NCBI GenBank assembly: GCA_031287525.1
Contig: JAITSU010000057.1
Span: forward strand, 1-64,000
From: Zoogloeaceae bacterium
GTDB lineage: Bacteria; Pseudomonadota; Gammaproteobacteria; Burkholderiales; Rhodocyclaceae
Direction of reading: 5' to 3'
DNA length: 64,000 nucleotides
The first letter of the stretch is position 1, and the number at the start of each line of letters is the position of its first letter. The notes beneath the pieces were generated by a model, which ran no database searches, was not told the origin of the DNA, and saw nothing but the letters and a program-made list of their open reading frames with translations. Shown here one piece after another: positions 1,443-46,698 of the stretch. The translations under genes and the position numbers were made by a program.

Positions 1443-2360
1443 TCAGTATTCTGGCGCGTGGGCAGTCAGCCCGATGAGCACCGGCAGATCAAGGGCATGA
1501 CCGTTTTCGCCGGTCTCGAATACCCGGCAGAGGCTTTCCACGGCGTATTCGATGGCGGACAACACCGACATGCGACCGCTCGCCATGCCAACATCCACAT
1601 TCAATAACGCGACCAGTCCTGCCTTGTCTTCCGTGCCCAGTTCTTCCTTTTCTTCACCGGCGCGGTGAGCTTCGCGGAATGTGTGCAAATCCACCAACGG
1701 GCGGAAGGCTTCGATCAGGTCATCTGCCAGATTGAAGGCGTTTTGCTCGCTGGCATGAAAAAGACCAATGGAGGGGTGCAATCCGTGCGCGACCAGCCCA
1801 CGGGCAATCGCGCCACGCAGGATGGCATAGCCATAGTTAAGCGCGGCGTTGATCCAGCCTTCCTCACCGCGAAAAAAGCCGGAACCAAACAGGCGCGGAA
1901 AGTAAAATGCCGCTGCCTGCCCCTCCAGATTTTCACCGTCGCCTGAGCGTACATTCGCAGCAATCGCTTCAAGACGTTTACTGCCTTCCCGTTTGGTAAG
2001 AGCGAGGCAATGCCCCTGATTTTCAATTTTGCGCCGAACCATCGCTGCCCATGCCTGCTTGATTAACGGCTTGCCTGCCTGTAATTGCAGGCGCAGCATC
2101 CGGGTGGTGCGCGAATGATTCAGAAAGGGCAGGAATACGCCGTTTGGCTGATGGTTGTCGCCCAAAGAGTAGAGGCTGACGCCATAGTCCGCGCAGGCGG
2201 AAAGCACCGGATGGGTCAACATGATTTGCCGATGATTGAGGACAATTACGGCAATGTCCTCAAAAGGAATCGTTACCGTGTCTTCCTGCTCGACGGCGAG
2301 TGAGAAATGTTCCCGTTTGAGGCGAGCCGGACGGGAGATCATGATGCTACGCCAGCCCAC
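1443..2360 (-). CDS. cas1: CRISPR-associated integrase Cas1 (type II-C)
   Basis: This 305-aa protein is Cas1, the integrase that inserts new spacers. I place the start at a GTG giving MGWRSIMISRPARL, which matches the usual type II Cas1 N-terminus; an upstream start would add 14 residues read from the end of cas9. The N-terminal beta domain contains FEDIAVIVLNHRQ. The C-terminal helical domain holds the metal-site segments around FRGEEGWINAALNYGYAILRG, HPSIGLFHASEQNAFNLADDL and EAFRPLVD. It overlaps the end of the cas9 C-terminal fragment by 14 bp, the usual cas9-cas1 coupling, and is followed immediately by cas2. It looks intact. Confidence 0.96.
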   Translation of the reverse strand: MGWRSIMISRPARLKREHFSLAVEQEDTVTIPFEDIAVIVLNHRQIMLTHPVLSACADYGVSLYSLGDNHQPNGVFLPFLNHSRTTRMLRLQLQAGKPLIKQAWAAMVRRKIENQGHCLALTKREGSKRLEAIAANVRSGDGENLEGQAAAFYFPRLFGSGFFRGEEGWINAALNYGYAILRGAIARGLVAHGLHPSIGLFHASEQNAFNLADDLIEAFRPLVDLHTFREAHRAGEEKEELGTEDKAGLVALLNVDVGMASGRMSVLSAIEYAVESLCRVFETGENGHALDLPVLIGLTAHAPEY

Positions 2361-2659
2361 GACGCAGCTCCGGGCGGGCGGGATAGATGTTGCCCAAGAC
2401 ATCTACCTCGAATTTCTCAAGTTTGAGGGCGGTTTTTACGCCAATACCCTCAATAGAGCCATCTTTGCCTACTGTTTGGTTGCGGTCATGCGCCCAAATA
2501 TTAATCGCGCCAGTGCCGCGATGTGTGCTGGCGTAATACCCAAAAAAGGTTTCTTTCTTCTGTGTAATTCGCACCAAATCATTCGGATGCAACGAAAAAC
2601 ACCAATCAAAGCTCTCGTCAATCAGCGTCCATTCTTCTTCGTCCTTTCCCTGAACAATC
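2347..2659 (-). pseudogene. cas9: Cas9 C-terminal fragment (101 codons) cut off by the prophage
   Basis: Read leftward from the prophage boundary, this frame encodes the last 101 residues of a type II-C Cas9: from QGKDEEEWTLID through SLHPNDLV, FGYYASTHRGTGAINI and EGIGVKTAL to RRGLA-stop. It matches the end of N. meningitidis Cas9 (QGKDEEDW, SLHPNDLV, ASCHRGTGNINI). It continues exactly where the large Cas9 piece at 43582-46698 leaves the family (NRAIV | QGKDEEEW). It has no start codon of its own in a sensible position. The segment carries the part of the PAM-interacting domain that touches the PAM; the residues equivalent to Nme H1024 and T1027 are kept, while that for N1029 is Ala. Confidence 0.95.
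2653..2659 (+). repeat. Left copy of prophage target duplication (AACAATC)
   Basis: The same 7 bp occurs at the right prophage boundary. Cas9 homology stops at this point on both sides. A Mu-type transposase duplicates 5 bp, so the real duplication is a 5-bp subset; the remaining bases match by chance or belong to the phage end. Confidence 0.85.
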
Positions 2660-2791
2660 TTACAGAGAGTGAGATATTTACAGGGGGTGGAGCGAGCTAA
2701 TTGGGGGATATAGCGGGATATAGGGGGATTTTCCGGGCGGCGCGATTAAAACGTGTTTAGCAGGGGGAAATAAAGACGGCGGCTTGGTTTT
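2660..2791. other. Left prophage end, noncoding
   Basis: No gene is visible. It contains GAGCGAGCTAATTG, shared with the right end, and two direct copies of GGGATATAG (2705-2730 region) that could be further transposase sites. Confidence 0.6.
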
Positions 2792-3427
2792 TCATCGGGC
2801 TGCGGCGTTCAGCATCCCGGAAATGGCGTCCAGAATGGTTTTTTCGGTTTCCGGTTGGAGGGTGGCATTTTCGGGGGAGCCGTAAAAAGGCAGGAAGGGG
2901 CGGGCGGGGATGTTGACTTGCCAGGCTTCGGCTGTGTGCCACGTTTCGCGCACTTGTTTATGGCTATCCCTGGCGAAGACAGCGAGACCTTTTCCGCTGG
3001 ATTTGGCATTACCTTTATCACCCTGACGCAGCAGATTGCCCGCCTTATCGGTACGCAGGCGGACGCGGATGGAGCGGGCGGCGTGGTGGATGGTGCCGCC
3101 GAACTGGTGGATGGCAGCATAGGCGACGTTGGAGCCGACCAGCGCATAGTCGGAGCCGTAATCAGTGCTGATGCTGCCCGCGAGGATGCCACGGTCTTGC
3201 AGGATTTTCAGCACGGAGCCGCCGTTGTTGCGGCGCAGGCGGTTCCTGACGGTGGCGCTGGAGAGGGGAACCCAATGCGGGCGACCTTGGGCGGCGAAGT
3301 TTTCTTCGGTTTCTTTTTCCAGAATGCCCGCGATGACTTTGAACAGCGGGCGGGCGTCTTTCAGCGTACCCGCGAGGTCTTGCAGCTTTTGTTGTGTCTC
3401 TCCGGCGTCGAGTGTGACTTTGAGCAT
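2792..3427 (-). CDS. Phage virion morphogenesis protein (Mu gpG-like)
   Basis: The 211-aa product matches the phage virion morphogenesis family (Mu G, tail completion or head-tail joining). Supporting features are the N-terminal coiled segment (QQKLQDLAGTLKDARPLF), the FAAQGRPHWVPLSSATVR stretch, the central GSNVAYAAIHQFGGTI motif and the C-terminal PARPFLPF motif, all typical of the family. It is the last gene of the leftward lysis/packaging operon, as G follows F in Mu. Its last 237 bp are duplicated in inverted orientation at 14284-14520. In Mu the next genes would be the protease and major head; here those are 22 kb away on the other strand. Confidence 0.85.
   Translation of the reverse strand: MLKVTLDAGETQQKLQDLAGTLKDARPLFKVIAGILEKETEENFAAQGRPHWVPLSSATVRNRLRRNNGGSVLKILQDRGILAGSISTDYGSDYALVGSNVAYAAIHQFGGTIHHAARSIRVRLRTDKAGNLLRQGDKGNAKSSGKGLAVFARDSHKQVRETWHTAEAWQVNIPARPFLPFYGSPENATLQPETEKTILDAISGMLNAAAR
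2807..3043 (-). repeat. Inverted repeat copy 1 (237 bp, 3' part of gpG)
   Basis: This segment is repeated in the opposite direction at 14284-14520 with roughly 90 percent identity by eye; the differences cluster in the first third. The two copies bracket the whole lysis/packaging block. Recombination between them would flip the ~11.2 kb between and still leave one complete gpG. Confidence 0.9.
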
Positions 3428-3684
3428 GGTCAGATCAATACGTTGGGATCGTCTAACAACTCGCCAACCTTCGGAAACAACTTCCGAATCAGCGCATCCT
3501 GTGCGTCCTCATCTTCCGGGATCGGCGTATTGTTCTCAATCGCCCACTGCTGGAGATCATTCTGTATCCCGTCCGACATGAAGCCCATGCATACCGACGG
3601 CGGCCACCGCCCGAATTTTTCAAGGTAGGCATATTCAGCAGAGTAGGTTTGCGCCATCATTTCAAAATTTGAGCATGGTCAGAT
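3419..3684 (+). repeat. 17-bp direct repeats bounding a duplicated small gene
   Basis: TTTGAGCATGGTCAGAT occurs at 3419-3435 and 3668-3684, 249 bp apart. Read on the coding strand, the first is the gpG start region. The second is a relic of that start (ATG CTC AAA TTT TGA) lying after the other small gene. This marks a tandem duplication of the small gene plus the first codons of gpG. Confidence 0.85.
3430..3660 (-). CDS. Small acidic protein, candidate immunity protein copy 2
   Basis: The product is 76 aa with no signal or membrane segment. It is a clear paralogue of the gene just upstream: both begin MM(A/S)Q, both have an aromatic stretch then KFG, a conserved Met/Asp region, an AI...PI segment and an acidic tail. 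It lies between that paralogue and gpG and was created by a 249-bp tandem duplication. It is downstream of the MuF protein, whose C-terminus is a metallopeptidase domain; immunity genes of polymorphic toxins are usually placed like this and are often duplicated. The immunity role is inference from position; I do not recognise the family. Confidence 0.75.
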   Translation of the reverse strand: MMAQTYSAEYAYLEKFGRWPPSVCMGFMSDGIQNDLQQWAIENNTPIPEDEDAQDALIRKLFPKVGELLDDPNVLI

Positions 3685-3882
3685 GAAGATCGTGCCATCG
3701 CCGGGGAAACCAATTTCTGCCCAAGTCTCTTTTTGCAGCGCCTCATCATCAATGGGCTGACCGCTGGCAATCGCGCGCCGCATGATTTCATCTTGCGCGG
3801 CATCAGACTTGTAGCACATGGACGATACCATAGGGTCTGTTCCGAACTTTGCGATGTAATCGTAGTAAGCCTGTGACATCAT
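3679..3882 (-). CDS. Small acidic protein, candidate immunity protein copy 1
   Basis: The product is 67 aa from an ATGATG pair whose first ATG overlaps the stop codon of the MuF gene, so translation is coupled to MuF. A longer frame upstream would only re-read the MuF end. It contains YYDYIAKFGTDP, a Met-Cys-Tyr-Lys-Ser segment and AIASGQPIDDEAL, mirrored in the next gene. Net charge is negative and no membrane segment is seen. Coupling to a MuF-toxin fusion suggests it protects the lysogen from the toxin domain, but function is not shown by sequence alone. Confidence 0.75.
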   Translation of the reverse strand: MMSQAYYDYIAKFGTDPMVSSMCYKSDAAQDEIMRRAIASGQPIDDEALQKETWAEIGFPGDGTIFI

Positions 3883-5663
3883 TTCAGCAACTCCAGAAAA
3901 ACCCGGTTCATTTCGGGTGTCATCCGTTCTATCACCTGTTTCCAAAATAGTCCACCTTCACCGTGAAGGCAAAAGAGGTTGGCGAATGATTCCGTCCCTG
4001 CTTTGTCGGGAGACTGGTTGTAGTATGCATTTGGATGCCCCCAGCCACTTTTTGTAAAGCCGCCGACCTTGTTTTTCGTTGCGCTCCCGATCAGGTCGGA
4101 AAGCTGCCCAAGCGTACCTTTCCCAAAGGCAGTAGAGCGTTCATAGGCAAGGACATAGGAACCCGCGCCTTTCTGTACCAAAACGGGCTGCGCGTTAACA
4201 CCGCCCGTCAGCGCGTCCAGCAAGCCCTGGGCGTCCCGTTCTTCAAAGGCAACGATGATGCGCCGGTAACGGTCTTGCGCGGCGGCGGCATCCAGCAAAT
4301 CCGGGAAAGCGGCGTGCTTTTCGATGGCTGCGCGGGCGCTTGTGTAGTCGATGCCGGATTTCTGATAGCGGGCAGATAACCATGCTTCGCGGTCAGCCGC
4401 CGCCATGAAGTCCTGTCGCGCGCCATCGTAAGCGGAATCCAGCGCCGCCCTGCGCGCGAGCGTCTTTTTGCTGTTGACTTGCCCATGCGCTCCCATGTCA
4501 ATCAGGGCTTTTCTGTCTGCCTGCAAGGCGGCGTCAAATACGTCGCTACTGCTCGCGCAAAGATAAGATTTTCCTCGCCCCAACTCGCCGTCAACGTGAT
4601 GCCCGAATTCATGCCGCCATACCGATTGACCGCGCAAGGAACTGTCCTTGTAGCCATCCATATTGATTTTCTGATGAAACACACAGAACGCATCTTTCCC
4701 CGTATGCTGCACATCCAACGGATCGCCCGCCTTCGCAATGGCTGACCGGATATAGTCAGGCGCATCAGCAAAGGATGCATCGTGCCATGCGCCCGCCGCC
4801 GTTTTCGGATTCCAGCCAGTCGCATAAGTTTGCACAGAAGCCGCCGACGCGGGGAACTTCGCCGCCAACTTTTCCGCCTTCTCCTTCAACAGATTTTGCA
4901 GTTCATCCGACTGCGTGAGCGCCGGATTGTGATCCCAACCGGGGTCGGGCCAAAAGACATGTTCCTTGCCGGTATCGTCGGCGGTGCGAATGCCCTTGAC
5001 CCGCAGGGTGTCGCCGCCCTTGTTGATGACGACTTCTTTTTCCACGATGGCGTTCTTGCCATCCTCCAGCGCCGCGCCGGACTGCTCGAACTCCGCCGCC
5101 GACAGCGCCTCTACACGGCAGCGACAACCCCAGCCGTTGGGTGGCCAGAGGGTTTGCCAGATGGGATCGTCGGCGCGCCAAACCTTGCCGTTCAATGCCG
5201 CGTGACCGGCGCGGGTGCGGCTGTCCATCACCGCCACATAGCGCCAGTACGGGCGGTTTTCGGCGTTGTCCAGATACCGCTTGTAGCGACCCGCCATGTA
5301 ACTGGTTTGCACGTTGGTCTGGAAGATGGTGCGTAGCCGCCGGTTACTGCCCAGTTGTACCTGGGTGATTTCGCCCGTGTCGATGTCGAGCATTTCTTGC
5401 TTGCCCCACCAGCCCGCCTCCTGCAAACGCGGGCGCAGGGACTTTTTGAAATCCTCGAAGGGACGACCTTCTTTCAGGCTACGTTCGATTTCCTTCTGGA
5501 ACCAGCTCAACATGTCCAGAGTGGTGACTTTGGCGACGGTAAAGGACTGCGCGTGCGTTTCGGCTTCGGTGTCATGCCAGTCCCACGCCAGATGTACGCC
5601 CTTCTTTTCAAAGAAAGCGATGGCGTCTTTCGGCGGCAGGTTGAGGTGGGCGGTGAGGTTCAT
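3879..5663 (-). CDS. MuF head morphogenesis protein fused to a zinc-metallopeptidase toxin-like domain
   Basis: The 594-aa product starts with a MuF/gp30-type minor capsid domain (about residues 1-215). This ends in the family hallmark RPYWRYVAVMDSRTR ... WQTLWPPNGWGCRCRVEAL. The long C-terminal part is not in Mu F. It contains a zincin motif HEFGHH (H351, E352, H355) and a downstream GTESFANLF, where E558 could be the third zinc ligand. MuF proteins with variable C-terminal toxin domains are an established class of phage polymorphic toxins. The pattern HExxH plus E-x-F-A resembles metallopeptidase effectors. It is followed, with overlapping stop/start codons, by two paralogous small genes that could be immunity genes. 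MuF goes into the capsid, so the peptidase might be delivered with DNA or act in competition. Confidence 0.85.
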   Translation of the reverse strand: MNLTAHLNLPPKDAIAFFEKKGVHLAWDWHDTEAETHAQSFTVAKVTTLDMLSWFQKEIERSLKEGRPFEDFKKSLRPRLQEAGWWGKQEMLDIDTGEITQVQLGSNRRLRTIFQTNVQTSYMAGRYKRYLDNAENRPYWRYVAVMDSRTRAGHAALNGKVWRADDPIWQTLWPPNGWGCRCRVEALSAAEFEQSGAALEDGKNAIVEKEVVINKGGDTLRVKGIRTADDTGKEHVFWPDPGWDHNPALTQSDELQNLLKEKAEKLAAKFPASAASVQTYATGWNPKTAAGAWHDASFADAPDYIRSAIAKAGDPLDVQHTGKDAFCVFHQKINMDGYKDSSLRGQSVWRHEFGHHVDGELGRGKSYLCASSSDVFDAALQADRKALIDMGAHGQVNSKKTLARRAALDSAYDGARQDFMAAADREAWLSARYQKSGIDYTSARAAIEKHAAFPDLLDAAAAQDRYRRIIVAFEERDAQGLLDALTGGVNAQPVLVQKGAGSYVLAYERSTAFGKGTLGQLSDLIGSATKNKVGGFTKSGWGHPNAYYNQSPDKAGTESFANLFCLHGEGGLFWKQVIERMTPEMNRVFLELLK

Positions 5664-5697
5664 TTTTTGGGGATCAGGGGGTCAGGTGGCAGGTGGC

Positions 5698-5724
5698 GTA
5701 GGGGCGAACGCAGTTCGCCCCTAC
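5698..5724. repeat. Palindromic repeat, copy 1
   Basis: A 12-bp-arm palindrome GTAGGGGCGAAC / GTTCGCCCCTAC with a 3-nt centre. It lies between the tail-fibre-like gene and the MuF start. Confidence 0.9.
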
Positions 5725-5767
5725 AGCCCGTTGTGGATATGGGCGACCAACATTCATGATGTGATAT

Positions 5768-6829
5768 TCAGTCATAAATCACCTCAATAATCGCGCACGC
5801 CGCGCCGCCTTTCGCGCCGGTCGCCTGCGCCCTAGCGTAAGCGCTATTGACAACAGAAGCACCGTCTAGTGACGTCAGCCCCGCGCCGCCGCCGCCGATG
5901 AACGGCGTCTGGTCAGGCAGGTAAAAATACTGCCTTGTGCCGGACGAACAAGGGGTTCCGGGGATGCTGCCCTGGAACGCGCCCACAACATCAATCGCCT
6001 CTAGCGTCTGGCTGCTGCCGTTCGCGTAAGTTTGCTGAAGCGCCACGACTTCGCCGGGGAGCACCGAGGCTTCGTAAGCGCCGAACGTGGTGGCCGTCAG
6101 CGGGTAATTCGCGCTAACCCGCCGAGCCAGCAAGTTCAAAAAATCGCACTGAACGGGGTGGGGCGTGAGGGTGGGCGCGGCGCTGGTCAGCCCGTCGGCG
6201 TAAAGCCCGGATGAGCCGCCAGCAAAACTCACAGCTTGAGCGCCTGTTGGCGTCGCCGGGATGTACACCGGGACGCAGCCGCCGCCCGTATAGTTTTCAT
6301 CACCACCGGAAGCCGCGCCGCCCACGGAAGCCGCCGTCGCCAGGGCGGTAGTAGTGGCGGAGCTTGCTGCCGCCTTGCCGCCTTCCCCACCCTCTGCCAG
6401 GAGCGAGACCCCCGCGCCAGCAAAAGAACTCGCGCCACCCGCATTACCGGTCTCCGACGACGTATACGTTCCAGCGCGATTCGATGAAACCAAGGCGGTG
6501 ACGCCCGCTCCAGGCGCGCCCAACAGCAGCGTAAACGGGTCGCCGACGTTGCAGCGCACGTCCTTGATGGACGTGCCCCCCGCCGCGCCGCCCGTTGCCG
6601 CTGCCCTGCCAGCGGGCGAGGGGGCAGATGCTGATGCGGCACAAATCAACACCAACGCTACCGCGCCGGAACCGCCCGCGCCGAACAGCCAGATTTTGAA
6701 ATGGTCGGTGGGCGAAATGAAGGTCGTGCTTTCATCGAGACGCAGGTAGACGCTGCGCCGGGCTGAAAGCGCCTTCATGTCCGCGCCGATGGCTTGCGCC
6801 AGCGCGGTGATTCCGGTTTCAAGGCTCAT
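5768..6829 (-). CDS. Glycine/alanine-rich tail fibre-like protein
   Basis: The 353-aa product starts MSLETGITALAQAIGADMKAL, nearly the same opening as the next gene upstream, so the two share an N-terminal virion-attachment segment. A start 17 codons earlier would be read out of a palindromic repeat and is unlikely. The middle is low in complexity and rich in Gly, Ala, Ser and Thr (GAGGSGAVAL, GGEGGKAAAS); the C-terminus has FIGGGGAGLTSLDGASVV and ends CAIIEVIYD. Such glycine-rich sequence is common in phage tail fibre tips and adhesins. It lies between portal and MuF genes, an unusual place. The exact role (receptor binding) is inferred. Confidence 0.65.
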   Translation of the reverse strand: MSLETGITALAQAIGADMKALSARRSVYLRLDESTTFISPTDHFKIWLFGAGGSGAVALVLICAASASAPSPAGRAAATGGAAGGTSIKDVRCNVGDPFTLLLGAPGAGVTALVSSNRAGTYTSSETGNAGGASSFAGAGVSLLAEGGEGGKAAASSATTTALATAASVGGAASGGDENYTGGGCVPVYIPATPTGAQAVSFAGGSSGLYADGLTSAAPTLTPHPVQCDFLNLLARRVSANYPLTATTFGAYEASVLPGEVVALQQTYANGSSQTLEAIDVVGAFQGSIPGTPCSSGTRQYFYLPDQTPFIGGGGAGLTSLDGASVVNSAYARAQATGAKGGAACAIIEVIYD

Positions 6830-6845
6830 GTTTATTCCTTGTTGG

Positions 6846-6908
6846 GTAGGGGCGAACTGCGTTCGCCCGTCGTTGGACAAGGCGCGGGCGAACGCAGTTC
6901 GCCCCTAC
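6846..6908. repeat. Palindromic repeat, copy 2 (two units)
   Basis: Two units facing each other: GTAGGGGCGAACTGCGTTCG at the left and its near reverse complement at the right, with a 20-bp spacer. Between the two tail-fibre-like genes. Confidence 0.9.
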
Positions 6909-6919
6909 CGTCACCTGAT

Positions 6920-7426
6920 TCACGCCTTCGCCGCGTTGTAGTCGGCGACGAAATCATGGTCGGCGTCGCCAATATCCGCCGCCGCCGCCGCGCCGATGTT
7001 GGCGCGGGCTTGCGCCTGTCCGGTGGCGTCGATGCTCTGCGCCGCGTCGAAGCGCACACGGTTGCCGATGGCGGTCACAAGACTCGTCCCCAGCGCCGCG
7101 TTGTTGTCCAGATAATCGGCAAGCTCCTTCAGGGTATCCAGCGCGGCGGGCGCGCCATTCACCAGATCATCAATGGCGGCGGTGACGGTGGTTTGAATCT
7201 TCGCCGCCGACCAGGTGACATCTGTACCCGTGCCGTCATCGTCGATGCCCGCGCCGCCGGTTGAGGTGATGGCGTCGACGGCGGCCTTGAGTTCGTTCAA
7301 TGCCGCGACGAGGCTCTGTTTTGCCGTCGTGGTGAGATTGGCAAGATTGCCTTGCCCGGCGAGCAGGGCTTTGATGTCCGCGCCGATGGCGGTGACTACG
7401 GCGGTGATGTTGGTTTCGAGTGACAT
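6920..7426 (-). CDS. Phage tail fibre-like protein
   Basis: The 168-aa product opens with MSLETNITAVVTAIGADIKAL, shared with the following gene. It continues with NLTTTAKQSLVAALNELKAAVD, a TLKELADYLDNNAALG segment and RVRFDAAQSID...QARANIGAAAA. The last two segments are typical of phage tail fibre shafts, which form trimeric coiled stalks. It sits in a block of four genes between portal and MuF. The pair could form one fibre with a shared attachment N-terminus. Confidence 0.7.
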   Translation of the reverse strand: MSLETNITAVVTAIGADIKALLAGQGNLANLTTTAKQSLVAALNELKAAVDAITSTGGAGIDDDGTGTDVTWSAAKIQTTVTAAIDDLVNGAPAALDTLKELADYLDNNAALGTSLVTAIGNRVRFDAAQSIDATGQAQARANIGAAAAADIGDADHDFVADYNAAKA

Positions 7427-7450
7427 GGTTTTCTCCTTTGTTTTCAGGTA

Positions 7451-7478
7451 GTAGGGGCGGTTCGCGAACCGCCCCTAC
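7451..7478. repeat. Palindromic repeat, copy 3
   Basis: A perfect 28-bp palindrome with arms GTAGGGGCGGTTCG / CGAACCGCCCCTAC, in the gap between two small late genes. Confidence 0.92.
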
Positions 7479-7666
7479 AGTTTTGCTGCTTCGTAAAGGG
7501 CTAAAAGGTCGAGGTCAAAATCTTCAAGACCTTCGCCATCTTTGCCGTCCTTGCCTTGCAACACCTCGGCGAGCGTGATTTTCATGGCTTCCGGTTGTTC
7601 GGCGAATTTCAGCACGGCATGATTGCCGGGGATGAAAACCGATAATCCGCATGGGTTGCCTGGCAT
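7475..7666 (-). CDS. Small hypothetical phage protein
   Basis: The product is 63 aa and acidic at its C-terminus (EGLEDFDLDLLALYEAAKL). It begins MPGNPCGLSVF and has no signal peptide or membrane segment. It starts 4 nt after the stop of the preceding gene, so it belongs to the same operon between portal and tail-fibre-like genes. Its last codons lie inside copy 3 of the palindromic repeat, which may have supplied the stop. I do not recognise it; it may be a small structural or fibre-attachment protein. Confidence 0.6.
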   Translation of the reverse strand: MPGNPCGLSVFIPGNHAVLKFAEQPEAMKITLAEVLQGKDGKDGEGLEDFDLDLLALYEAAKL

Positions 7667-7669
7667 GGC

Positions 7670-7981
7670 TCATGGCTCCGTAACGGGTTTCGAGAGCGCG
7701 ATTTGCGCGGAGGGCGAAATCAGGACAACGCCCGCTGGCGATTTCAGACGCACGTCAACCGACGCTTCGCCCGGCTTCCAATCCGTTTGTTGGTCGGCGG
7801 CGGCGGTGATGCGGAGGATGGTTTTGCCTTGCGACCAGGTGAGCGAGCAGGTCAGCGCCGCTTCAAAACCGCGCCCGCGCAGGGTGGAGGTGGCAACCCA
7901 GCCGGTGAGGTCGGGATAGTCGGCGCCGATTTGCACGGGCGCCGCCCAATCCAGTGTCGCGCCGATTTTGTGCTGTTTCAT
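7670..7981 (-). CDS. Hypothetical phage structural protein
   Basis: The product is 103 aa. It starts MKQHKIGATLDWAAPVQIG and consists mainly of alternating beta-prone segments (GWVATSTLRG, AALTCSLTWSQGKTILRITA, SVDVRLKSPAGVVLISPSAQIAL), like small Ig-like baseplate or fibre-associated phage proteins. Its start codon overlaps the portal stop (ATGA), so it is translationally coupled to the portal gene. No specific function can be assigned; context suggests a tail-fibre-module component. Confidence 0.65.
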   Translation of the reverse strand: MKQHKIGATLDWAAPVQIGADYPDLTGWVATSTLRGRGFEAALTCSLTWSQGKTILRITAAADQQTDWKPGEASVDVRLKSPAGVVLISPSAQIALSKPVTEP

Positions 7982-11530: not shown

Positions 11531-11540
11531 GCGGGTTATT

Positions 11541-11697: not shown

Positions 11698-11705
11698 ACG
11701 CATGG

Positions 11706-37292: not shown

Positions 37293-37369
37293 TCTGCGCC
37301 CTGTCAAGCCGGAAGATTGCCGCTGTACGCTTATCCCATTTCCGCCGCTCAACCACCGGACATTTTCCA

Positions 37370-37906: not shown

Positions 37907-38058
37907 TGCGCTACACCGCTCGCCAGATCGCCCTGTTTTTCCGCGAAGCCATCCGCGCCGAAAACGAACAACAAGCCCGCGCCATCTGCGCTGCCAATCT
38001 GGGATTTTCGGGCGGCAAGGAAACAAAAAACGCCATCAACGAACTGCTGGGAGAATAA
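37906..38058 (+). CDS. Small tail ORF before tape measure
   Basis: The 50-aa product MRYTARQIALFFREAIRAEN ends INELLGE. It starts in the overlap TGATG with the previous gene and stops 3 nt before the tape measure gene. It may be the second component of the tail assembly chaperone pair. Not otherwise recognisable. Confidence 0.65.
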   Translation: MRYTARQIALFFREAIRAENEQQARAICAANLGFSGGKETKNAINELLGE

Positions 38059-38061
38059 ACG

Positions 38062-41000
38062 ATGGCGGGCGGAAGCAATCTCAATCTCGCGCTCAAAATT
38101 GAAGCCGACATCAAGCAGGCGCAAGCGGCGTTGTCGGGCATTCAGCAGCAAGTCGGCAGTGTCGCCGGAAACGCCAAAAGCGCAGGCGGCGCGGCAAGTG
38201 GCGCGGCGGGCGGATTCAACCAACTCGGCGCTGCCGCTGGCGGCGCGGCGGATGAGCTTGGCAAAGTCTCGCAATCCGCATCCGGCATCAAGGGCGCGCT
38301 GGGTAACGCCACCGCCGCCCTGAAAGGCTTTGTCGGCGCGTTTGTCGGCATAGGGGCCATCAAGGGCTTCATTGCGCTGGCGGATGAATACGGTCAGATG
38401 TCCAGCCGTATCAAAATGGCGACCCGTAGCGCCGAGGAATACGAGCAGGTGCAGATGCGCCTGCTGGATACCGCCAACAATACCTACCGCCCGCTCTCCG
38501 AGGTACAGGAAGCCTACATCCGCACCGCCGACGCGCTGCGCTCAATGAGTTACAACACCCATCAGGCAATGGATGTTTCCGATTCCCTGTCCTATCTTTT
38601 TGTCACCAACGCCGCCAGCGCCGACCGCGCGTCGTCCGCCATCGACGCCTTCGGCAAGTCCCTGCAAACCGGCGAAGTACACGCCATGCAATGGCAAACC
38701 CTGCTCGCCGCCGTGCCTTCGCTGGTGCAGGACATCGCCACCGCCAGTGGCAAATCGGCAGAGGAAATCAGAAAGCTGGGCGCGGAAGGCAAGCTCTCCG
38801 TCGCGCAACTCACCGAAGGCTTGCGCCAGTCCGCCGAGAAAAACAAACAACTGGCGGCGGACATGCCGGTCACGGTCGCGGATGCTTTCACCAAGCTCCG
38901 TAACAGTCTCGAAGCCTTTTTTGGCGAGGTCAATTCCGGCACGGGTCTGACGCAAATTCTGGTCAGCGCGCTGGAAGGCGTAGGCTCTGCCGTCGACTGG
39001 CTCACCGAAAATCTGGAGACCGCCGCGATTCATTTTGAAGGCTGGGGCGAGGACATCCGCCGTCTGCCGGAATCCGTAGCGTTTATGGTCGACGGGATTT
39101 CAAACGAAATGGACGGCTTGCTCGCCCTCATCGGCAGCGATTCCAGCGACATCCGCGACTTTCTGATGGGTGCGTTCAGGGAATGGCCGGAGAATGTCCG
39201 CCAGTTCATCCAGATCATCACCGTCGAAATCGCCGCTTTCGTCGACAAGTGTCGGGCATTCGGTGTCGACATCGCCAATTTCCTGAATCCGGTCAGCGCG
39301 ATCAAGGAAAGCTTCTCGGTGATGAACAAGGCGGTCAAGGGCGAACTCAAGACCGGCGACGCGCTTGTCGCCGAATTCGAGCGCATCAATGGCGTCCGCC
39401 GCGATTCCCTGCAAGCCATCGCCGATGAGCGCGTCGCTACGGAACAGAACGTCGAAGCGAAGAAAAAGGAAATCGCCGCCAAACGTGAGGCGATGAGGGC
39501 GGAAATTGAGCGCCAGCGGCAGGCAAAAGTCAATCTCAAAACGCCTACGAGCAAGACCGGCGGCAAAGCCAAGGCTGATCCTGTCGCGCAGGCATTGGCG
39601 CAGCAGGAACAGTCGCTCACCGTCGCGCTTGCCGAAGCGCATCAAAAACTGGCGAACGCCAAAAACGGTGTCGCCGATGCTGAAAACCGCGCCACTAGCC
39701 GTCTTGAAATCTGGCTCTCCACCAACAAGGCGGCGCAAGGCCTGACGGGAAGCCAGATTGCCGGGTTACGCAATCAAGCTGCTGCTGTCGACGCCGCCAC
39801 CAAAGCCTACACCGACCTCGCCGAAGCCAAAGCCCGCGCCGAACGGATCAAGAGCGGCATGGAAGACATCAACATCACCCTGCTCGAATCTCAGGGCAAC
39901 AACTTTGCAGCCTCAAAACGCCGCATTGAAAAGCAATACCGTGCCTTGGTCAAAGACCTGAACGACAGCGGCGACACGGTGAATCTCGATATCGTGACCC
40001 AAGTCAAGGATTACGAAGTCGCCAAAGCCAGATTGGATGACGTGCTCGCCAAAATCGACGCGATTCAGGCGGCTCAAAGCAGGGGCGAACAGTCGCTCTC
40101 TACGGCATCCGAAACCGGCTTACTGACCGAAGTCGAAGGCCGCGAACGTCTGCTGGACATTCATCGTCAGACCTACGCAGAGCTGCAAAAAATCCGCCCT
40201 GAACTCGAATACTTGGCGCGGCAACCCGACATCGTCGGTCAGCAAGCCGCCGTCGCGTTGCAACAACTCACCGATCAGGAAAAGAAGCTGCAAGCGACGA
40301 CGACGCTTTTCGCCAGTACCTTGAAAAACGGTCTGACATCTGGCTTGCAGCAAGCCATCAGCGGTCTTGCCGACGGCACGATGTCGCTGCGTGACGCCAT
40401 TCACGCGCTTGCCACCGAAATTGCTCAGTCGCTCTTGAAAATGTACGCCGACAACGCCGTGCAATTCTTCATGAAGCCTGACGGCCCGCTGGGGGACTTT
40501 TTCAAAATGGGCGATTCCGGCGCGGGCGGGGCGGGGGGATTGCTCGGCGCGCTGTTTGGTAACGGAACACAAGGCGCGGCGGCGGCAACCACGACTGCCA
40601 ATACGGCATCGGTCACGGCAAACACGGCGGCGATCACCACTCTGACGGCACAACTTGCCACTTCCGGTCTGACCGACGTGGCAGCGAACGTCGCAAACGA
40701 TGCCGTGGAAGGCGTCAGCCAAGCGGCAGAAACCGCCAACAACGCTGCCCTGATGACTTCCGCCACCAGCTTGACGGCGGCGGGTACGATGTTGCTGACC
40801 TCTGCTACGGCGCTACAAGCGGCAGCCGCCGCAATCAGCGCCAGTGCTGCTGGTGGCGGCATGAGCGCGCTGGGCAGTTTGGGGAGCGGAATCGTCGGGA
40901 GCTTGTTTGCCACGGGTGGCTATACCGGCGCGGGCGGGAAATACCAGCCCGCCGGTATCGTCCATGCGGGTGAATTTGTCGCGCGGCAAGAAGTTGTACG

Positions 41001-41319
41001 CCAACCCGGCGCGTTGTCTTTTTTGTCGGCGTTCAACCGGAACGGTATGCAGGCTATCGAAGCCTGGATAGGCAAAGGATATGCCGACGGCGGCCCGGTC
41101 ACTCCCATTTCCATCCCATACACCCGCCTCAGCGCGACAAACATTCAACCCGTTTCGGTATCAGGGGGCAATACCTCGGTAGACAACAAGATTGCCCTCA
41201 ACCTGTTCGATGATCCGTCACGCATGGCTGACGTCATCAGTTCCCCGCAGGGCGAAAAAGCCTTCACCGTCCTGCTCTCAAGAAACCCGCAAAAATTCCG
41301 CCAGATTTTGGGCGTATAG
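38062..41319 (+). CDS. Tape measure protein
   Basis: The 1085-aa product is the longest in the phage. Its N-terminal ~300 residues carry the tape-measure domain (LADEYGQMSSRIKMATRSAEEY, SSAIDAFGKSLQTGEVHAMQWQ, SGKSAEEIRKLGAEGKLSVAQ). Long coiled coils follow (AKREAMRAEIERQRQAKVN, QEKKLQATTTLFAST). An Ala/Gly-rich hydrophobic region is at 830-970. The C-terminal motif GIVHAGEFVARQEVVRQPGA is common at the end of such proteins. It fixes tail length and forms part of the DNA channel. The predicted tail is about 160 nm if the usual 1.5 angstrom per residue holds. Confidence 0.9.
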   Translation: MAGGSNLNLALKIEADIKQAQAALSGIQQQVGSVAGNAKSAGGAASGAAGGFNQLGAAAGGAADELGKVSQSASGIKGALGNATAALKGFVGAFVGIGAIKGFIALADEYGQMSSRIKMATRSAEEYEQVQMRLLDTANNTYRPLSEVQEAYIRTADALRSMSYNTHQAMDVSDSLSYLFVTNAASADRASSAIDAFGKSLQTGEVHAMQWQTLLAAVPSLVQDIATASGKSAEEIRKLGAEGKLSVAQLTEGLRQSAEKNKQLAADMPVTVADAFTKLRNSLEAFFGEVNSGTGLTQILVSALEGVGSAVDWLTENLETAAIHFEGWGEDIRRLPESVAFMVDGISNEMDGLLALIGSDSSDIRDFLMGAFREWPENVRQFIQIITVEIAAFVDKCRAFGVDIANFLNPVSAIKESFSVMNKAVKGELKTGDALVAEFERINGVRRDSLQAIADERVATEQNVEAKKKEIAAKREAMRAEIERQRQAKVNLKTPTSKTGGKAKADPVAQALAQQEQSLTVALAEAHQKLANAKNGVADAENRATSRLEIWLSTNKAAQGLTGSQIAGLRNQAAAVDAATKAYTDLAEAKARAERIKSGMEDINITLLESQGNNFAASKRRIEKQYRALVKDLNDSGDTVNLDIVTQVKDYEVAKARLDDVLAKIDAIQAAQSRGEQSLSTASETGLLTEVEGRERLLDIHRQTYAELQKIRPELEYLARQPDIVGQQAAVALQQLTDQEKKLQATTTLFASTLKNGLTSGLQQAISGLADGTMSLRDAIHALATEIAQSLLKMYADNAVQFFMKPDGPLGDFFKMGDSGAGGAGGLLGALFGNGTQGAAAATTTANTASVTANTAAITTLTAQLATSGLTDVAANVANDAVEGVSQAAETANNAALMTSATSLTAAGTMLLTSATALQAAAAAISASAAGGGMSALGSLGSGIVGSLFATGGYTGAGGKYQPAGIVHAGEFVARQEVVRQPGALSFLSAFNRNGMQAIEAWIGKGYADGGPVTPISIPYTRLSATNIQPVSVSGGNTSVDNKIALNLFDDPSRMADVISSPQGEKAFTVLLSRNPQKFRQILGV

Positions 41320-41471
41320 GAGACAAAAAAGACGGGCGACCGACCCGGATGTTAGCGCATCCACGCCGATCCCCAACAAGCTGAAGCAACCAGCAAGTCA
41401 GGCAAGGCCCGCCGCCGTCATGACAGCGCGCCAAGCCTATCAGATTTTCTGACAAGAAAAAGGCTTGCTTT

Positions 41472-41708
41472 ATGGAAAATATCCGTTGCGGACAATGCAA
41501 CCGCAAACTGGCGGAAGCCGAATACATCCGCCTTGCAATCAAGTGTCCCCGTTGCGGGACTGTTAACCAGATGAAGGCCACTGAGCCTCCTACCCGCGCG
41601 GCAAGACCGCCCGATACGGAGGTTCACAATGGCAAACCCGAAACAGCCGCTCGGCAAGAACGGCTTCAAGTATCAGGAACGCTACGGCGTCATCATCCTG
41701 TGCGATGA
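41472..41708 (+). CDS. com: Com-like zinc-finger translational regulator
   Basis: The 78-aa product opens MENIRCGQCNRKLAEAEYIR ... IKCPRCGTVNQM. The four cysteines C6, C9, C25 and C28 form the zinc finger of Mu Com, which activates translation of mom by opening its mRNA. The first 36 residues align well with Mu Com; the rest is variable. It lies at the right end of the phage just before the Mom-like gene, as in Mu, but a 50-codon ORF overlaps its 3' end. There is no mutation in the zinc ligands. Confidence 0.88.
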   Translation: MENIRCGQCNRKLAEAEYIRLAIKCPRCGTVNQMKATEPPTRAARPPDTEVHNGKPETAARQERLQVSGTLRRHHPVR

Positions 41709-41781
41709 CGAAAAGGCACAGCAAACGCTCTTTAACAAACTGAAGGCGGAAGGCTACAAGCTCCGTGTGGTGACCGTATGA
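41629..41781 (+). CDS. Small protein between com and mom-like genes
   Basis: The 50-aa product is MANPKQPLGKNGFKYQERYG, VIILCDDEKAQQTLFNKLKA, EGYKLRVVTV. A GGAGG lies 7 nt before its start and the stop overlaps the ATG of the next gene (ATGA). It is in a different frame from com, overlapping it by 80 bp. The beta-alpha-beta pattern suggests a small ferredoxin-like fold. The good ribosome site and coupling support a real gene; its function is not known. It could take part in the translational control that Com exerts. Confidence 0.72.
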   Translation: MANPKQPLGKNGFKYQERYGVIILCDDEKAQQTLFNKLKAEGYKLRVVTV

Positions 41782-42902
41782 AGCTCGCCATCCGCCACCA
41801 TTGCGCTGATTACGACAGCTACCGCGCGGCGCGTGTCAAATCGCTCTTCAACGTGGAGTCCGGCGCGGACTTCGCGTTGGATGTCGAACTCCCGATTGAG
41901 GATAGCGACTGGACAATCGGCGTCGTCGTCGGCCCGTCCGGTAGCGGTAAAAGCAGCATCGGAAAATCATTGGGCAAACCCTACGCCCCAATGTGGTCGT
42001 GTGATCAACCCATCATCGACGCCATTTCCCCGGCGGGCGACTTCAACGTCGTCACCGCCGCGCTGTCAGCAGTTGGTCTGGGCAGTGTTCCCACCTGGTT
42101 GCGCCCTTTTTCCGCGCTCTCCAACGGCGAACGCTTCCGTGCTACCTTGGCGCGTCTGGTTTGCGAAGCGCCGGAGTTCGCCGTGGTTGATGAGTTTTCA
42201 AGCGTCGTCGACCGGCAAATCGCCAGAATCGGCGCGGGCGCATTCGCCAAAGCGTGGCGGCGTACCGGCGGCAAAGCCGTGTTGCTCTCCTGCCATTACG
42301 ACATTCTGGATTGGTTGGAGCCGGACTGGATTTTCGACACCGCCAGCGGACAATTTGAACGGGGGCGTCTTCGACGGCGACCCAGGCTGGAAATGTCTGT
42401 CTACGCGACAAACTGGCATTATTGGTCACTGTTTGAGCCGCATCACTATCTGAAGCTGCCGCGCATGATCGCCGCCACCTGCTACGTCGCCGCCATTGAT
42501 GGCAACCCCGTCGCCCACCTCGCCGTCAGTACCCGCCCCGGTCTCATTGAAGCCCGCGCCTGTCGTTTGGTGGTGATGCCCGAATGGCAAGGCGCGGGCG
42601 TCGGAATGCGCTTCCTGAACACGGTGTGCGATCTCTGGCAACGGGGCGAAAACCGCTACGGCAAACCCATGCCCACCCTGTTTCACACTTCGCATCCCGG
42701 TCTCGCCGCCGCCCTGCGTCGGGATAAAAAATGGACGCAGGTTTCCGCGCGGCTTTACGGCGATCACAAAGGTCGCTGCAAGCAATCCATCGCCGCCAGC
42801 CTGACCAGGGCAGGGAAGGAAGCGTCCGGCGCATCGGGCTACGGCGGGCACTTTCGCGCTGTGCAGGGTTTCCGCTATCTGGGGGAGCCATGCGTATCGT
42901 AA
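41778..42902 (+). CDS. ABC-type ATPase fused to a Mom-like GNAT acyltransferase (predicted DNA modification enzyme)
   Basis: The 374-aa product has two domains. Residues 1-200 form a full ABC ATPase: Walker A GPSGSGKS (52-59), signature LSNGE (114-118), Walker B FAVVDE (134-139) and switch His 173 (LLSCHYDI). No membrane segment is present, so it is not a transporter. Residues ~205-370 form a GNAT-type domain with NWHYWSLFEPHHYLKLP, MPEWQGAGVGMRFLN (acyl-CoA loop QGAGVG 271-276) and HTSHPGLAAALRRDKKW, like Mu Mom. Mom modifies adenine in phage DNA to evade restriction. The ATPase could supply energy to prepare base or cofactor. It sits between com and a formyltransferase gene, overlapping the latter by 13 bp. 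Confidence 0.85.
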   Translation: MKLAIRHHCADYDSYRAARVKSLFNVESGADFALDVELPIEDSDWTIGVVVGPSGSGKSSIGKSLGKPYAPMWSCDQPIIDAISPAGDFNVVTAALSAVGLGSVPTWLRPFSALSNGERFRATLARLVCEAPEFAVVDEFSSVVDRQIARIGAGAFAKAWRRTGGKAVLLSCHYDILDWLEPDWIFDTASGQFERGRLRRRPRLEMSVYATNWHYWSLFEPHHYLKLPRMIAATCYVAAIDGNPVAHLAVSTRPGLIEARACRLVVMPEWQGAGVGMRFLNTVCDLWQRGENRYGKPMPTLFHTSHPGLAAALRRDKKWTQVSARLYGDHKGRCKQSIAASLTRAGKEASGASGYGGHFRAVQGFRYLGEPCVS

Positions 42903-43501
42903 TCGTCGGACAGAAATGGCTGGGCGCGGAAGTCCTGCGGCTCTGCCTGAAGCGCGGCGACGACATCGCCAATGTGCTTGCGCCCGGAGCGGACGGCGAA
43001 GAATACGACCGCCTGTATGCCGCCGCGCAACAGTCAGATGTCCCGGTCGAAACCTGCGAAAGGCGGGTAGAAGCCAGCCACATCCCGCCCCAAACAGACC
43101 TCATCATCGCCGCCCACGCCCATGCCTATATTTCAGAAGCGGCGCGGCAAGCCGCCCGCTACGGCGCATTGGGCTACCACCCCTCGCTACTCCCACGACA
43201 CCGGGGACGCGACGCCGTGCGCTGGACACTCCACATGCGCGACCCCATCGCAGGCGGCACAGTGTATTGGATGGACAACGGAGCCGACACCGGCAACATC
43301 GCCGCCCAACACTGGTGCCACGTCCGCCCCACCGACACCGCCCGAACCCTATGGCAACGCGACCTCGCCCCCATCGGTCTGCGCCTCATAGAACAGACAC
43401 TCTCCGATCTGGACAAAGGCATCCTCACCTCCATCCCTCAAACCGAGGAATGCGCCACCTGGGAACCCGCCTTCACCCCCTCCCGCCTGTCCAGCGCATG
43501 A
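42890..43501 (+). CDS. Formyltransferase-family protein of the modification cassette
   Basis: The 203-aa product has the N-terminal Rossmann strand MRIVIVGQKWLGAEVL and the catalytic region LIIAAHAHAY ... GALGYHPSLLPRHRGRDAV ... WMDNGADTGNI, as in GAR and Met-tRNA formyltransferases. His 97 and Asp 133 are kept, but the position of the usual catalytic Asn (N-x-H) is Gly 95. It lacks the C-terminal tRNA-binding domain of Fmt. The start overlaps the end of the Mom-like gene, so they work together; a formyl (one-carbon) group may be part of the DNA modification. A terminator follows immediately. Confidence 0.85.
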   Translation: MRIVIVGQKWLGAEVLRLCLKRGDDIANVLAPGADGEEYDRLYAAAQQSDVPVETCERRVEASHIPPQTDLIIAAHAHAYISEAARQAARYGALGYHPSLLPRHRGRDAVRWTLHMRDPIAGGTVYWMDNGADTGNIAAQHWCHVRPTDTARTLWQRDLAPIGLRLIEQTLSDLDKGILTSIPQTEECATWEPAFTPSRLSSA

Positions 43502-43509
43502 ACAAAAAT

Positions 43510-43534
43510 AATCCGCCCCAACAGGCGGATTTTT
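43510..43534 (+). terminator. Terminator at the end of the phage late transcript
   Basis: An 8-bp stem AATCCGCC-ccaaca-GGCGGATT followed by TTTC, 9 nt after the formyltransferase stop. Confidence 0.8.
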
Positions 43535-43535
43535 C

Positions 43536-43634
43536 AAATTCTTTTCTTGTGGTTAATTTTATTTCCCATAGCTAAATACTGTCACACCTCATTTATCTCG
43601 CTCACACCACCGGATTTAGCGCGCGCGGCGTTAA
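43536..43634. other. Right prophage end, noncoding
   Basis: No gene. Read inward from the boundary it contains GAGCGAGATAAATG, the partner of the left-end motif. Its last 50 bp also encode the 16 foreign residues at the end of the truncated Cas9. Confidence 0.65.
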
Positions 43635-46600
43635 CAATCGCCCGATTCGGTAGCCCTGCCACCCGATGATGCACATACACCGGCACAAGGTAGAACTTGC
43701 CAGCCTTGGTGAACACATCCACGCGCAGCATGGTGTCGTTTTTGGTGATGCCGCCCCGAATGGGGATGCCGGAGAGTTTGTCGATGACCGTTGTCACGGT
43801 GCGGACAATGGGGCCGGTGAGGTTGCCGTCTTTGTCCGGTTTTCTGAATTCCGTTCCGGCGGGGAAAGCCTTGTCGCCTTTGCCACCGTGCTCTTCCAGC
43901 CGTTTGCGGATCGCCGCGTAAAGGCGTTCATTGCGGTGAGGGTCAATGAGATTGTCCAGGTCTTTCAGGCTCAACGCCGAAAGCGCGACTTTTTGGGTGA
44001 CGCCGCCTTGCGGACGCAGACGCTCTGGTTGCCCGTAAATCGTGTCTTTATGCGCCGCGCCGCTATTGCGCCGTTGCGGAGCGCGCGACACAAACAGCGG
44101 GCGCAGAGTCTTCAGTTCTTCCGCGCTGTAAGTACCGAGGCGTTCCACTTCACTCCGCAGTTTTTCCACGTCATCCATTTTCAGACGGGCTTCCAGTTCG
44201 TGATGAAAATGCGACCAAGGTTTTGGAAAATTGTTTTCCAGTTTGTGCAGTGCGGCGATGTCGAGCACTTCGCCTGTTTCAATATCCACAAAACCTTGCC
44301 GGACTTGTTCCAGTTCTTTTTTGCGGCTGTAGTCTGCAAGACGCTTCACCATGCCATGACTACACGCGGCAATTACGGCGGCATCCAGCGCGTGATGGCG
44401 GTCGCTTTCAGCGCGGATTTTGAGGATTCCCCAACGGGCGCGCAAAAAAGCGGTCATTGAGCCAGACAGCACGACACAACGCTGTACTGTCGAACCGTCG
44501 GCGCTCGGTGCCAGTTTGAGATAACGCTCAATGTAATTCTTGAAAAAGCGGCAGATGTAACGGGTGTCGCTCAGATTGCGTTCACGGAAATCCTTTGCGT
44601 CTTTTGCGTCGAACCCCTTTTTCAGCAGGCGGCTGCGTTTGGCTTGGCGGTAGCTTTTGTTTCCTTCCACGAAAGCCACGAAGCCGCGCCAGCGTTCCCC
44701 GTCTTCGCCGCCCTCGAAGCGTGTCAGATATTCGTAGGGTGTGCGGTTGCCCTTGTCGCGGTTTTCCTTGGTGAGCGCCAGCACTTTGTTGTTCTTGCTG
44801 TCGTCGAAGCTACGTGAATAGGGCAAAGCGTGGTCAACCTCCACATAGCCGGATTCGGTCAAGCGGTGCAGATTAAGGGGCTGTAGCGAATAGGCGCACT
44901 TGCCTCCCTGCTCATGATAAAGCCGCCATTTTTCAAAATCGCGTCCATTGGGCGACACGCCCATTTCTTCAAAGAAACGACTCTTCAACTTTTCGTTTTG
45001 GTCATGGTAAGTTTCCTGCTCTTTCTTGATTTTGTTGCGTTCATCAAGGGGGCGGGAGAGGTCGCGTGCCATCTCGATATGGATCGCGGTCGGTGTACCG
45101 TAACGCCGAATGACGGCATTGACGACTTTACGCGCTTGATTCAGCGCGCGCAGGACGACGGGGTTGCGCGGAATGTCTGCCTCCTCGCTGAATTTCATCC
45201 TGCCTTGCTGGTCGCGCCCGCTGTAGAGCGGGGGCAGGAATTTGTGTTCGCCCGCGCCCACTTCATACAGTTGGCTATGGTGATAACCTGCCGACACGCA
45301 GGCTTCGTCATAGCGTTGTCCTTGTTCCATAAAGTGTACGATGTTGCGAAGCGCCTTCAGGGAAAGGTTGCTGAATTTATCGAAACTCACTTCGGAAAGG
45401 GCGGCGACCAGTTTTTCGCCGCCGGGCAAGGCTAATTTGCGGAGTTCGGCAACGACCTCGTCATCATCCTTATAAACAGACAATACGCGGGCGAGTTCGT
45501 CCAGTTGTTCCGGGTGTCCATCTTGCGCCGCGCCTGCCATGCTTTGCCATTCCGTACCGAGACCACTGCCTTCCAGTTTTTTGCGTAAGGTATGCCAGGC
45601 TGCCAGCTTGACGAGGGCTGTGCCTTCCGGGTCTTTTGCCTTGTCTTCTGTGGCTTGCCGCGCGCTTGGGTAAGCCAGCCCCGCGAACTTGAAGCTTTCA
45701 GGCAACACGCCAAGCAAGGCGCTACGCAGTTGTTTGTAGGTCAGCCCTTTACTTTCGTCGCCTTTGGCATAAGGCAAGGGTAAAGCGAGCCGGCGTTCCG
45801 CTTCATTGAGTGGACGGGTTGTGCCATCCACGACAATCCGCAAATTGTTGAGCCGGGTCAGCCAGACATGGCGTTCGGCGGTGAAGCTGGCTTTGGGCGC
45901 GCGGTATTCGTCTTTCTCGAAAGTGCATTTGCCCAGCATTTTGAGTAATGCTTCACCAGAGAGCGCGGGTTTTTGCAGCCAGAAAAGCCCGCTTTTGCGG
46001 TCGCCGTTGCCAAGAATGGCAGTTTTTAGCGTGGTGTCGGCATGAGGGTTGCCCAATCCACGCTGCGCCGCGAACAGTTTTTCGAGTTCCTGACCCAGCA
46101 GGATGCGCGAAAGCGCCTTGTTGTATTCGCCGCGTTTGTTGCGCTGGGCATCCGGGAATTCAGCAAGCGCCATTTCCGCCGCGCTGCGGTAGCCTTTTTC
46201 TTCCATGCGCTTCCTGGTAGCAGCCAGCCCTTGCTTGACCTTGCCGCCTTCGCCCTTGGCGTCAGCTTCCGCCGCTTTTTCTTCGGCTTTGCTGATCCAG
46301 TGAAATCCGCGATGTTTGACAAGGTGGTAAATGACTCGCGCCCATTCTTCTGGTAGAAGCAGGCGATCCAGCCCTTCGGCGCGTAGTTGCCAGAGGGTTT
46401 TAGCCTTGCCTGCTGCGTCCTTGTCTGTATAAGGATTGTCCGCGCGGAAGAAGTGAGGGCTGTTAATCAGTCCGTTCCGTTTCAGAAGTCGCGCCAACTT
46501 TTTGAGACGTTCCGCGCGATGCGATAGTCGGTGGCGCATGAGCCGCGCATCCCGCCGCGCCTTGTTCAGCGATTCGCCTTCCTTGGCGGTTTCGGCTTTG

Positions 46601-46698
46601 TCAAAGGCGCGGACGCCCAAGTCGATGATGTGGTCATCCGCCAGCACGCTCCAGCCAACAGAGGCAATGCCAATATCCAGACCCAGTATATATGCCAT
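43582..46698 (-). pseudogene. cas9: Cas9 N-terminal part (1022 of ~1123 codons), truncated by the prophage
   Basis: Type II-C Cas9. The start is ATG giving MAYILGLDIGIASVGWS, 6 nt after AGGTG; a GTG three codons earlier overlaps that ribosome site. RuvC-I has D8, the arginine-rich bridge helix follows (RDARLMRHRLSHRAERLKKL), RuvC-II has E542 (IHIEMARDLSRP), HNH has H623 (VEVDHALPYSRSFDDSKNNK) and RuvC-III has HHALDAAVIA (H768, D772). All nuclease residues are intact. After V1022 (PNRAIV) the frame enters the prophage and adds 16 foreign residues before a stop. The missing 101 residues contain most of the PAM-contacting part. A stable truncated protein might bind guide RNA but should not find targets normally. 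Confidence 0.95.
43633..43639 (+). repeat. Right copy of prophage target duplication (AACAATC)
   Basis: Matches 2653-2659; see that entry. Confidence 0.85.

What the first reader, a model, noticed from the sequence alone, without database searches (positions are those of the whole stretch)
2347..46698. A Mu-like prophage has inserted into cas9 and split the CRISPR effector gene
The Cas9 frame at 46698-43582 follows the family to PNRAIV, then runs into 16 unrelated codons. The frame at 2659-2347 begins QGKDEEEWTLID and completes the family C-terminus. Joined, they give a ~1123-aa type II-C Cas9. The joint on both sides is a shared AACAATC. The 41 kb between is a full Mu-type phage genome. Transposable prophages rarely excise cleanly, so interference is probably lost, while array, tracrRNA, cas1 and cas2 remain. 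A phage has disabled the host's antiphage system simply by where it landed.
Basis: partly seen in the sequence, partly recalled or inferred. Interest (0 to 1): 0.88.

Follow-up and report, generated by a model that had tools for sequence, protein, structure and literature searches.

The report
Jumping prophage splitting a cas9 gene
A virus that spreads by jumping into DNA has landed inside the cas9 gene of an unnamed bacterium and cut this immune gene in two; close cousins of this accident are already published, so it is a clean new example rather than a new kind of system.

Summary
A minus-strand type II-C cas9 is cut by a ~41-kb prophage (2660-43633). Joined over one copy of a 6-bp duplication (ACAATC, 2654-2659 and 43634-43639), the halves give an open 1126-codon Cas9 (1123 from the ATG) that aligns to relatives without a gap at the joint. 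The phage is gene-complete and B3-type, not a close Mu relative. The cut Cas9 keeps 1025 residues, gains 16 phage-coded ones and loses 101, matching NmeCas9 from residue 981 on. Interference is very probably lost, but this is inference. cas1 overlaps the cas9 end, so cas1-cas2 are probably cut off from the cas9 promoter. No spacer matches the prophage with fewer than 8 of 30 mismatches. In the genus, the three cas9 genes that can be judged are all damaged, by different routes, so counter-defence is only one possible reading. Published precedents: IS elements in cas genes, prophages in CRISPR arrays, DMS3-driven CRISPR deletions. Ten literature searches listed no transposable prophage inside cas9.

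The parts
7..966 (+). CRISPR array, 15 repeats of 36 bp with 30-bp spacers; the contig begins inside it
   Evidence: repeat found nowhere else in the assembly
1107..1439 (-). cas2
   Evidence: Pfam and PADLOC
1443..2402 (-). cas1; its start overlaps the end of cas9
   Evidence: Pfam and PADLOC
2347..2659 (-). 3' fragment of cas9 (with the left duplication copy)
2654..2659 (.). left copy of the 6-bp target duplication ACAATC
2660..43633 (.). B3-type transposable prophage, ends TTACAGAGAG... and ...GCGGCGTTA
2792..3427 (-). G (tail completion/neck), last gene of the leftward late block (F 3879-5663, portal 7978-9588, TerL 9585-10979, TerS 10976-11548, Rz 12543-13103, lysozyme 13421-14182)
16011..16721 (-). 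helix-turn-helix repressor-like gene
18380..20134 (+). transposase (rve and Mu-transpos_C domains, both just below Pfam's cut-off; PHROG transposase E 3.7e-115)
20131..21486 (+). AAA ATPase, MuB-like (start codon chosen by me)
25433..27421 (+). head protease (25433-26449) and major capsid protein (26462-27421)
28265..41319 (+). gp36, major tail protein, tail assembly and hub proteins, tape measure (38062-41319)
43634..43639 (.). right copy of the 6-bp target duplication ACAATC
43582..46707 (-). 5' part of cas9 with 16 phage-coded codons at its end (family start ATG at 46698)
46749..46855 (+). predicted tracrRNA: anti-repeat then hairpins, promoter-like site 46714-46741
   Evidence: duplex with the repeat -51.9 kcal/mol

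Best explanation
A B3-type transposable phage integrated by DDE transposition into an intact type II-C cas9 and duplicated 6 bp (ACAATC). Shown: the split gene, the duplication, phage ends like those of relatives, a gene-complete prophage, an open frame when joined, one cas9 and no empty site in the assembly. Inferred: the product stops after 1025 of 1126 residues plus 16 phage-coded ones and lacks the end of the PAM-interacting region, so RNA-guided interference is lost; cas1-cas2, normally behind cas9 in one operon, are separated from its promoter, so adaptation is probably reduced as well. The event looks recent on the scale of gene decay. Whether it was favoured by selection is not known.
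For: Junctions and frame; 6-bp duplication in 4 of 4 elements for which both ends were found, the window's included; phage genes and kinship; one Cas9 HNH match, one transposase match and no empty junction in the own assembly; lost part equals NmeCas9 981-1075 or beyond; no second lesion in cas9, and body and tail dN/dS against L127 0.14 and 0.15.
Against: No reads were seen, so the fraction of cells with the insertion is unknown. Draft assembly, 94% complete. The end dinucleotides TT/TA differ from the TG/CA of B3 and G013, although G152 has TA/TA. The dN/dS ratio averages over the whole divergence from L127 and cannot date the event closely. Loss of interference rests on homology alone.
Confidence: 0.87

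Rival explanations
1. Passenger insertion: in this genus cas9 is under weak or negative selection and breaks by whatever comes along; the phage hit a dispensable gene and any benefit to it is incidental. This is a rival to the reader's motive, not to the insertion.
For: 5 of 20 genomes of the genus have a cas9 match. Three can be judged and all are damaged: the window's by the phage, G004's by a TAA near codon 86, G010's by frame change, missing middle and flanking transposase-like peptides. No spacer matches the phage with fewer than 8 of 30 mismatches.
Against: Draft genomes can hold sequence errors; G005 and G007 are cut by contig ends. 69 of 80 named Cas9 loci give one full-length match, and dN/dS is low, so cas9 is kept on the whole. 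The rest of the array is missing, so a matching spacer could exist.
Confidence: 0.5
2. Selected insertion: CRISPR attacked the incoming phage or its lysogens, and the cells that survived were those in which the phage had landed in cas9.
For: Known in principle: DMS3 lysogens under self-targeting survive with CRISPR deletions made by phage transposition (PMC11406979). Spacer 9 matches 22 of 30 bases at 7103 in the prophage.
Against: Eight mismatches, including some at the 3' end of the spacer, make that match doubtful; in 2.7 Mb of other loci it and one other spacer reach 8 mismatches as well.
Confidence: 0.15
3. Assembly artefact: two genomes or an episode of lytic transposition were joined by the assembler.
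For: It is a draft genome of 113 contigs and no reads could be checked.
Against: Both junctions carry the same 6-bp duplication next to ends homologous to those of related phages, and the two cas9 halves are complementary to the codon. No empty allele is in the assembly.
Confidence: 0.04
4. The truncated Cas9 still acts, for example by binding guide RNA or by regulating transcription.
For: RuvC- and HNH-type regions remain and the tracrRNA looks intact.
Against: The lost part matches NmeCas9 from 981 on, where PAM contacts lie (recalled, from no call).
Confidence: 0.07

Closest known systems
Insertion sequences in cas genes (PMC10359306, passages read)
   Same: A mobile element transposes into a cas gene, makes a target duplication and inactivates CRISPR immunity.
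   Different: Small IS there; a 41-kb gene-complete prophage here.
Prophage integration into CRISPR loci of Streptococcus pyogenes (Varble 2021; seen only as cited in PMC10359306)
   Same: A prophage disables a type II system by its place of integration.
   Different: [quoted passage not shown] here transposition into cas9.
CRISPR loss by DMS3 transposition in P. aeruginosa lysogens (PMC11406979, abstract, outline and passages read)
   Same: A Mu-like transposable phage removes CRISPR function through transposition.
   Different: Large deletions of a type I-F region under known self-targeting there; one clean insertion in type II-C cas9 here, with no known self-targeting.
Pseudomonas phage B3 (NC_006548)
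   Same: Homologous terminase, portal, head, tail and transposase genes and left end.
   Different: Gene order: protease-to-tail genes follow G in B3 but lie on the far side of the early genes here; host differs.
Neisseria meningitidis Cas9 (PDB 8ja0, 6jdq)
   Same: Closest solved structures by sequence.
   Different: Intact there; here cut at the equivalent of residue 981.

Membership tests
B3-type transposable phage | DDE transposase with an AAA ATPase beside it | tested here: met
   PHROG transposase E 3.7e-115; AAA_22 E 2.3e-17. The Pfam rve and Mu-transpos_C matches are below Pfam's own cut-offs.
B3-type transposable phage | Mu-like head genes and tape-measure tail of B3 kind | tested here: met
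   portal, gp27, F, G, protease, capsid, gp36, tape measure; 18 of the 26 window phage proteins used hit B3 by tblastn
B3-type transposable phage | fixed-length target duplication next to homologous ends | tested here: met
   6 bp in the window, G013, G159 and G152. For G149, G156 and G164 the second end was not found in what was fetched.
B3-type transposable phage | gene order of B3 | tested here: not met
   Other order. It is shared by relatives: 28 of 80 IMG/VR loci, many of them fragments, show both terminase leftward before A and protease/capsid rightward after A. So: a relative of B3, not filed in its genus.
B3-type transposable phage | makes infective particles | not testable with these tools
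   needs induction
Type II-C CRISPR-Cas | cas9, cas1, cas2 only, with Cas9 of about 1000-1150 aa related to NmeCas9 | tested here: met
   no other gene lies between cas1/cas2 and the array (by position)
Type II-C CRISPR-Cas | array with matching tracrRNA anti-repeat | tested here: met
Type II-C CRISPR-Cas | uninterrupted effector gene | tested here: not met
   split by the prophage
Type II-C CRISPR-Cas | functional interference | not testable with these tools
   needs a plasmid assay

The most novel reading that the evidence does not exclude
The prophage has turned the locus into an adaptation module under phage control. Its leftward late genes (lysis to G) point at the cas9 tail, cas1 and cas2, and in 900-3500 the only terminator-like hit on the minus strand lies inside the cas9 tail (2522-2504). 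Late phage transcription could therefore drive cas1-cas2, so that spacer uptake would be tied to prophage induction in cells that lack interference.
Probability: 0.08. Interest if true: 0.65.

Novelty: new member of a known kind. Interest (0 to 1): 0.38.

Why it matters
It adds a gene-complete transposable prophage inside the effector gene itself to the recorded ways in which mobile elements switch off CRISPR-Cas, and gives a concrete case in which to ask whether such lysogens are selected or merely tolerated. The 6-bp duplication and the variable end dinucleotides help to map other phages of this group.

Tried and rejected
Spacers against the prophage: best match 8 of 30 mismatches (spacer 9 at 7103), and none better in the other loci held at that time. 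Spacers 9 and 11 found nothing in the phage collection; the other 12 of 14 were not searched there.

A prophage locked by mutated ends: dropped, since G152 has TA/TA ends with a 6-bp duplication. For G149, G156 and G164 the second end was not found in the stretches fetched; for G001 only a left end was seen.

An exact left-end pattern found nothing in IMG/VR. With up to 3 mismatches it gave 10 of 149 related genomes, of which the window, G013 and G001 are phage ends by their flanks; I judged the other seven chance.

A second related phage in the own genome, from a 59-bp right-end-like match on C22: none of the window's phage proteins used was found in the 49 kb fetched there.

Anti-CRISPR genes: NCBIfam on 10 small prophage proteins named none. 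PADLOC on seven prophage proteins gave one weak match, 41778-42902 to mad3, E 2e-8. Not every small ORF was scanned.

Other cas9 genes split by phages: none seen among the 80 named loci kept of 133 found. 69 of 80 give one full match; of the other 11, L167, L181, L196, L203 and L204 reach a contig edge or nearly so, L187, L202, L205 and L206 fall in two pieces, L197 has a diverged C-terminus, and L182 lacks its C-terminus with repeats next to it.

Literature: ten searches; none listed a transposable prophage in cas9. PMC7344871 (passages) was not relevant. Most subscription papers are not in that library.

Full report
Setting. The window is the first 64 kb of an 87,574-bp contig in a 2.75-Mb draft genome of 113 contigs, 94% complete. 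Among the named genomes searched the nearest Cas9 is from Betaproteobacteria bacterium MS502-43 (82%), then an Azoarcus bin (73%). A place in or near Rhodocyclaceae/Burkholderiales is my inference.

The split gene. cas9 is read on the minus strand from 46707 (family start ATG at 46698). It follows the family for 1025 codons, then runs into 16 phage-coded codons and stops at 43582. The rest lies at 2653-2347. Joined over one copy of ACAATC the frame is open for 1126 codons and matches the cas9 of G004 at 68% over its length, without a gap at the joint; L127 aligns across the joint as well. By sequence the body corresponds to NmeCas9 9-982 and the tail to 981-1075 of 1082 or more.

The insertion. 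The flanks share AACAATC. To place the boundary I compared ends. The sister prophage in G013 (same genus, transposase 81% identical) starts TGAGAGAGAATGAG and ends CGGCTTCA between two copies of GATTCC. B3 starts TGAGAGAGAGTGAG. The window's left end TTACAGAGAGTGAG aligns with both. IMG/VR record G159 has GTCGGC twice with TG...CA ends, and G152 has CTTCCC twice with TA...TA ends. So the duplication is 6 bp in 4 of 4 elements with both ends found, and the end dinucleotides vary within the group. The window's TT...TA pair was seen in no other element.

The phage. Found are a repressor-like gene, transposase, ATPase, DUF3164, lysozyme, Rz, both terminase subunits, portal, F, G, protease, capsid, gp36, major tail protein, hub-like proteins and tape measure. 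Of the 80 IMG/VR loci found with the transposase, many of them fragments, 48 show the terminase leftward before the transposase, 40 the protease or capsid rightward after it, and 28 both; 4 show the terminase otherwise. Of 24 such records searched with G, 12 match, and in all 12 a G match lies within about 4 kb of a record end, as here. The layout is thus ordinary for the group, though it is not that of B3.

The rest of the CRISPR locus. cas1 and cas2 are open. cas1 starts inside the end of cas9, which points to one operon, so the insertion should be polar on both; that is inference. A tracrRNA with a promoter-like site and an anti-repeat stands before cas9. The array shows 15 repeats, and the repeat was found nowhere else in the assembly, so the rest of the array, if any, is missing. 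Spacer 11 matches a long open frame, which I take for a primase/helicase, in G010 with 3 of 30 mismatches; spacer 12 reaches 5 mismatches in G018. No spacer matches the prophage with fewer than 8 mismatches.

When and why. Against L127, body and tail have dN/dS of 0.14 and 0.15, and cas9 has no second lesion, so the break looks recent. In the genus 5 of 20 genomes have a cas9 match: the window's is split; G004 has a TAA near codon 86; G010 is in fragments with a frame change, and peptides beside them look like an IS transposase, a recalled resemblance; G005 and G007 are cut by contig ends. Among 80 named Cas9 loci 69 give one full match. Damage to cas9 is thus common in this genus and does not need this phage. 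That weakens, but does not exclude, the reading that the landing paid for the phage.

Known work. PMC10359306 (passages) reports IS insertions in cas genes and cites prophage integration into CRISPR repeats. PMC11406979 (abstract, outline, passages) reports DMS3 transposition that deletes CRISPR regions. PMC5977238 (passages) says that auxotrophic insertions are seen with B3-like or Mu lysogens, unlike D3112, and that B3 differs from the D3112 group by an inverted early operon. This case is a new member of that kind.

Noticed in passing
window 2807-3046 and 14281-14520; G013:C121 (L026-L028); G164 (L278): Part of the G gene is repeated in inverted orientation (240 bp, 93%) around the 11-kb head/lysis block. 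In the sister prophage of G013 this block is inverted and the tape measure gene lies at the left end. In the distant G164 two inverted G copies (346 bp, 73%) bracket an 11-kb block of other content. This may be a recurrent inversion, or in part an assembly effect.
   Followed up: partly
window near 6845, 13336, 18313, 21494, 24782, 25288, 28167, 30154: Palindromic repeats of the form GTAGGGGCGAACTGCGTTCGCCC...GGGCGAACGCAGTTCGCCCCTAC, whole or in part, stand at eight or more places of the prophage, mostly between genes.
   Followed up: no
window 8214-8320: Another palindromic repeat (GAGGACAGAGGAC...) inside the portal reading frame; its core occurs at 28 places in the own genome against 0 for the reversed pattern, and at other places in the G013 prophage.
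   Followed up: partly
L182 4700-4930: A Rhodocyclaceae bin whose cas9 stops near residue 932 and runs straight into CRISPR repeats, as if the cas9 end, cas1 and cas2 had been deleted.
   Followed up: no
G000:C22:62873-62931 (L226): A 59-bp stretch, 76% like the right end of this prophage, elsewhere in the own genome without phage genes of this kind nearby; perhaps a relic, perhaps chance.
   Followed up: partly
window 799-834: The third repeat from the cas side of the array has 4 mismatches, while the other 14 repeats are identical.
   Followed up: no
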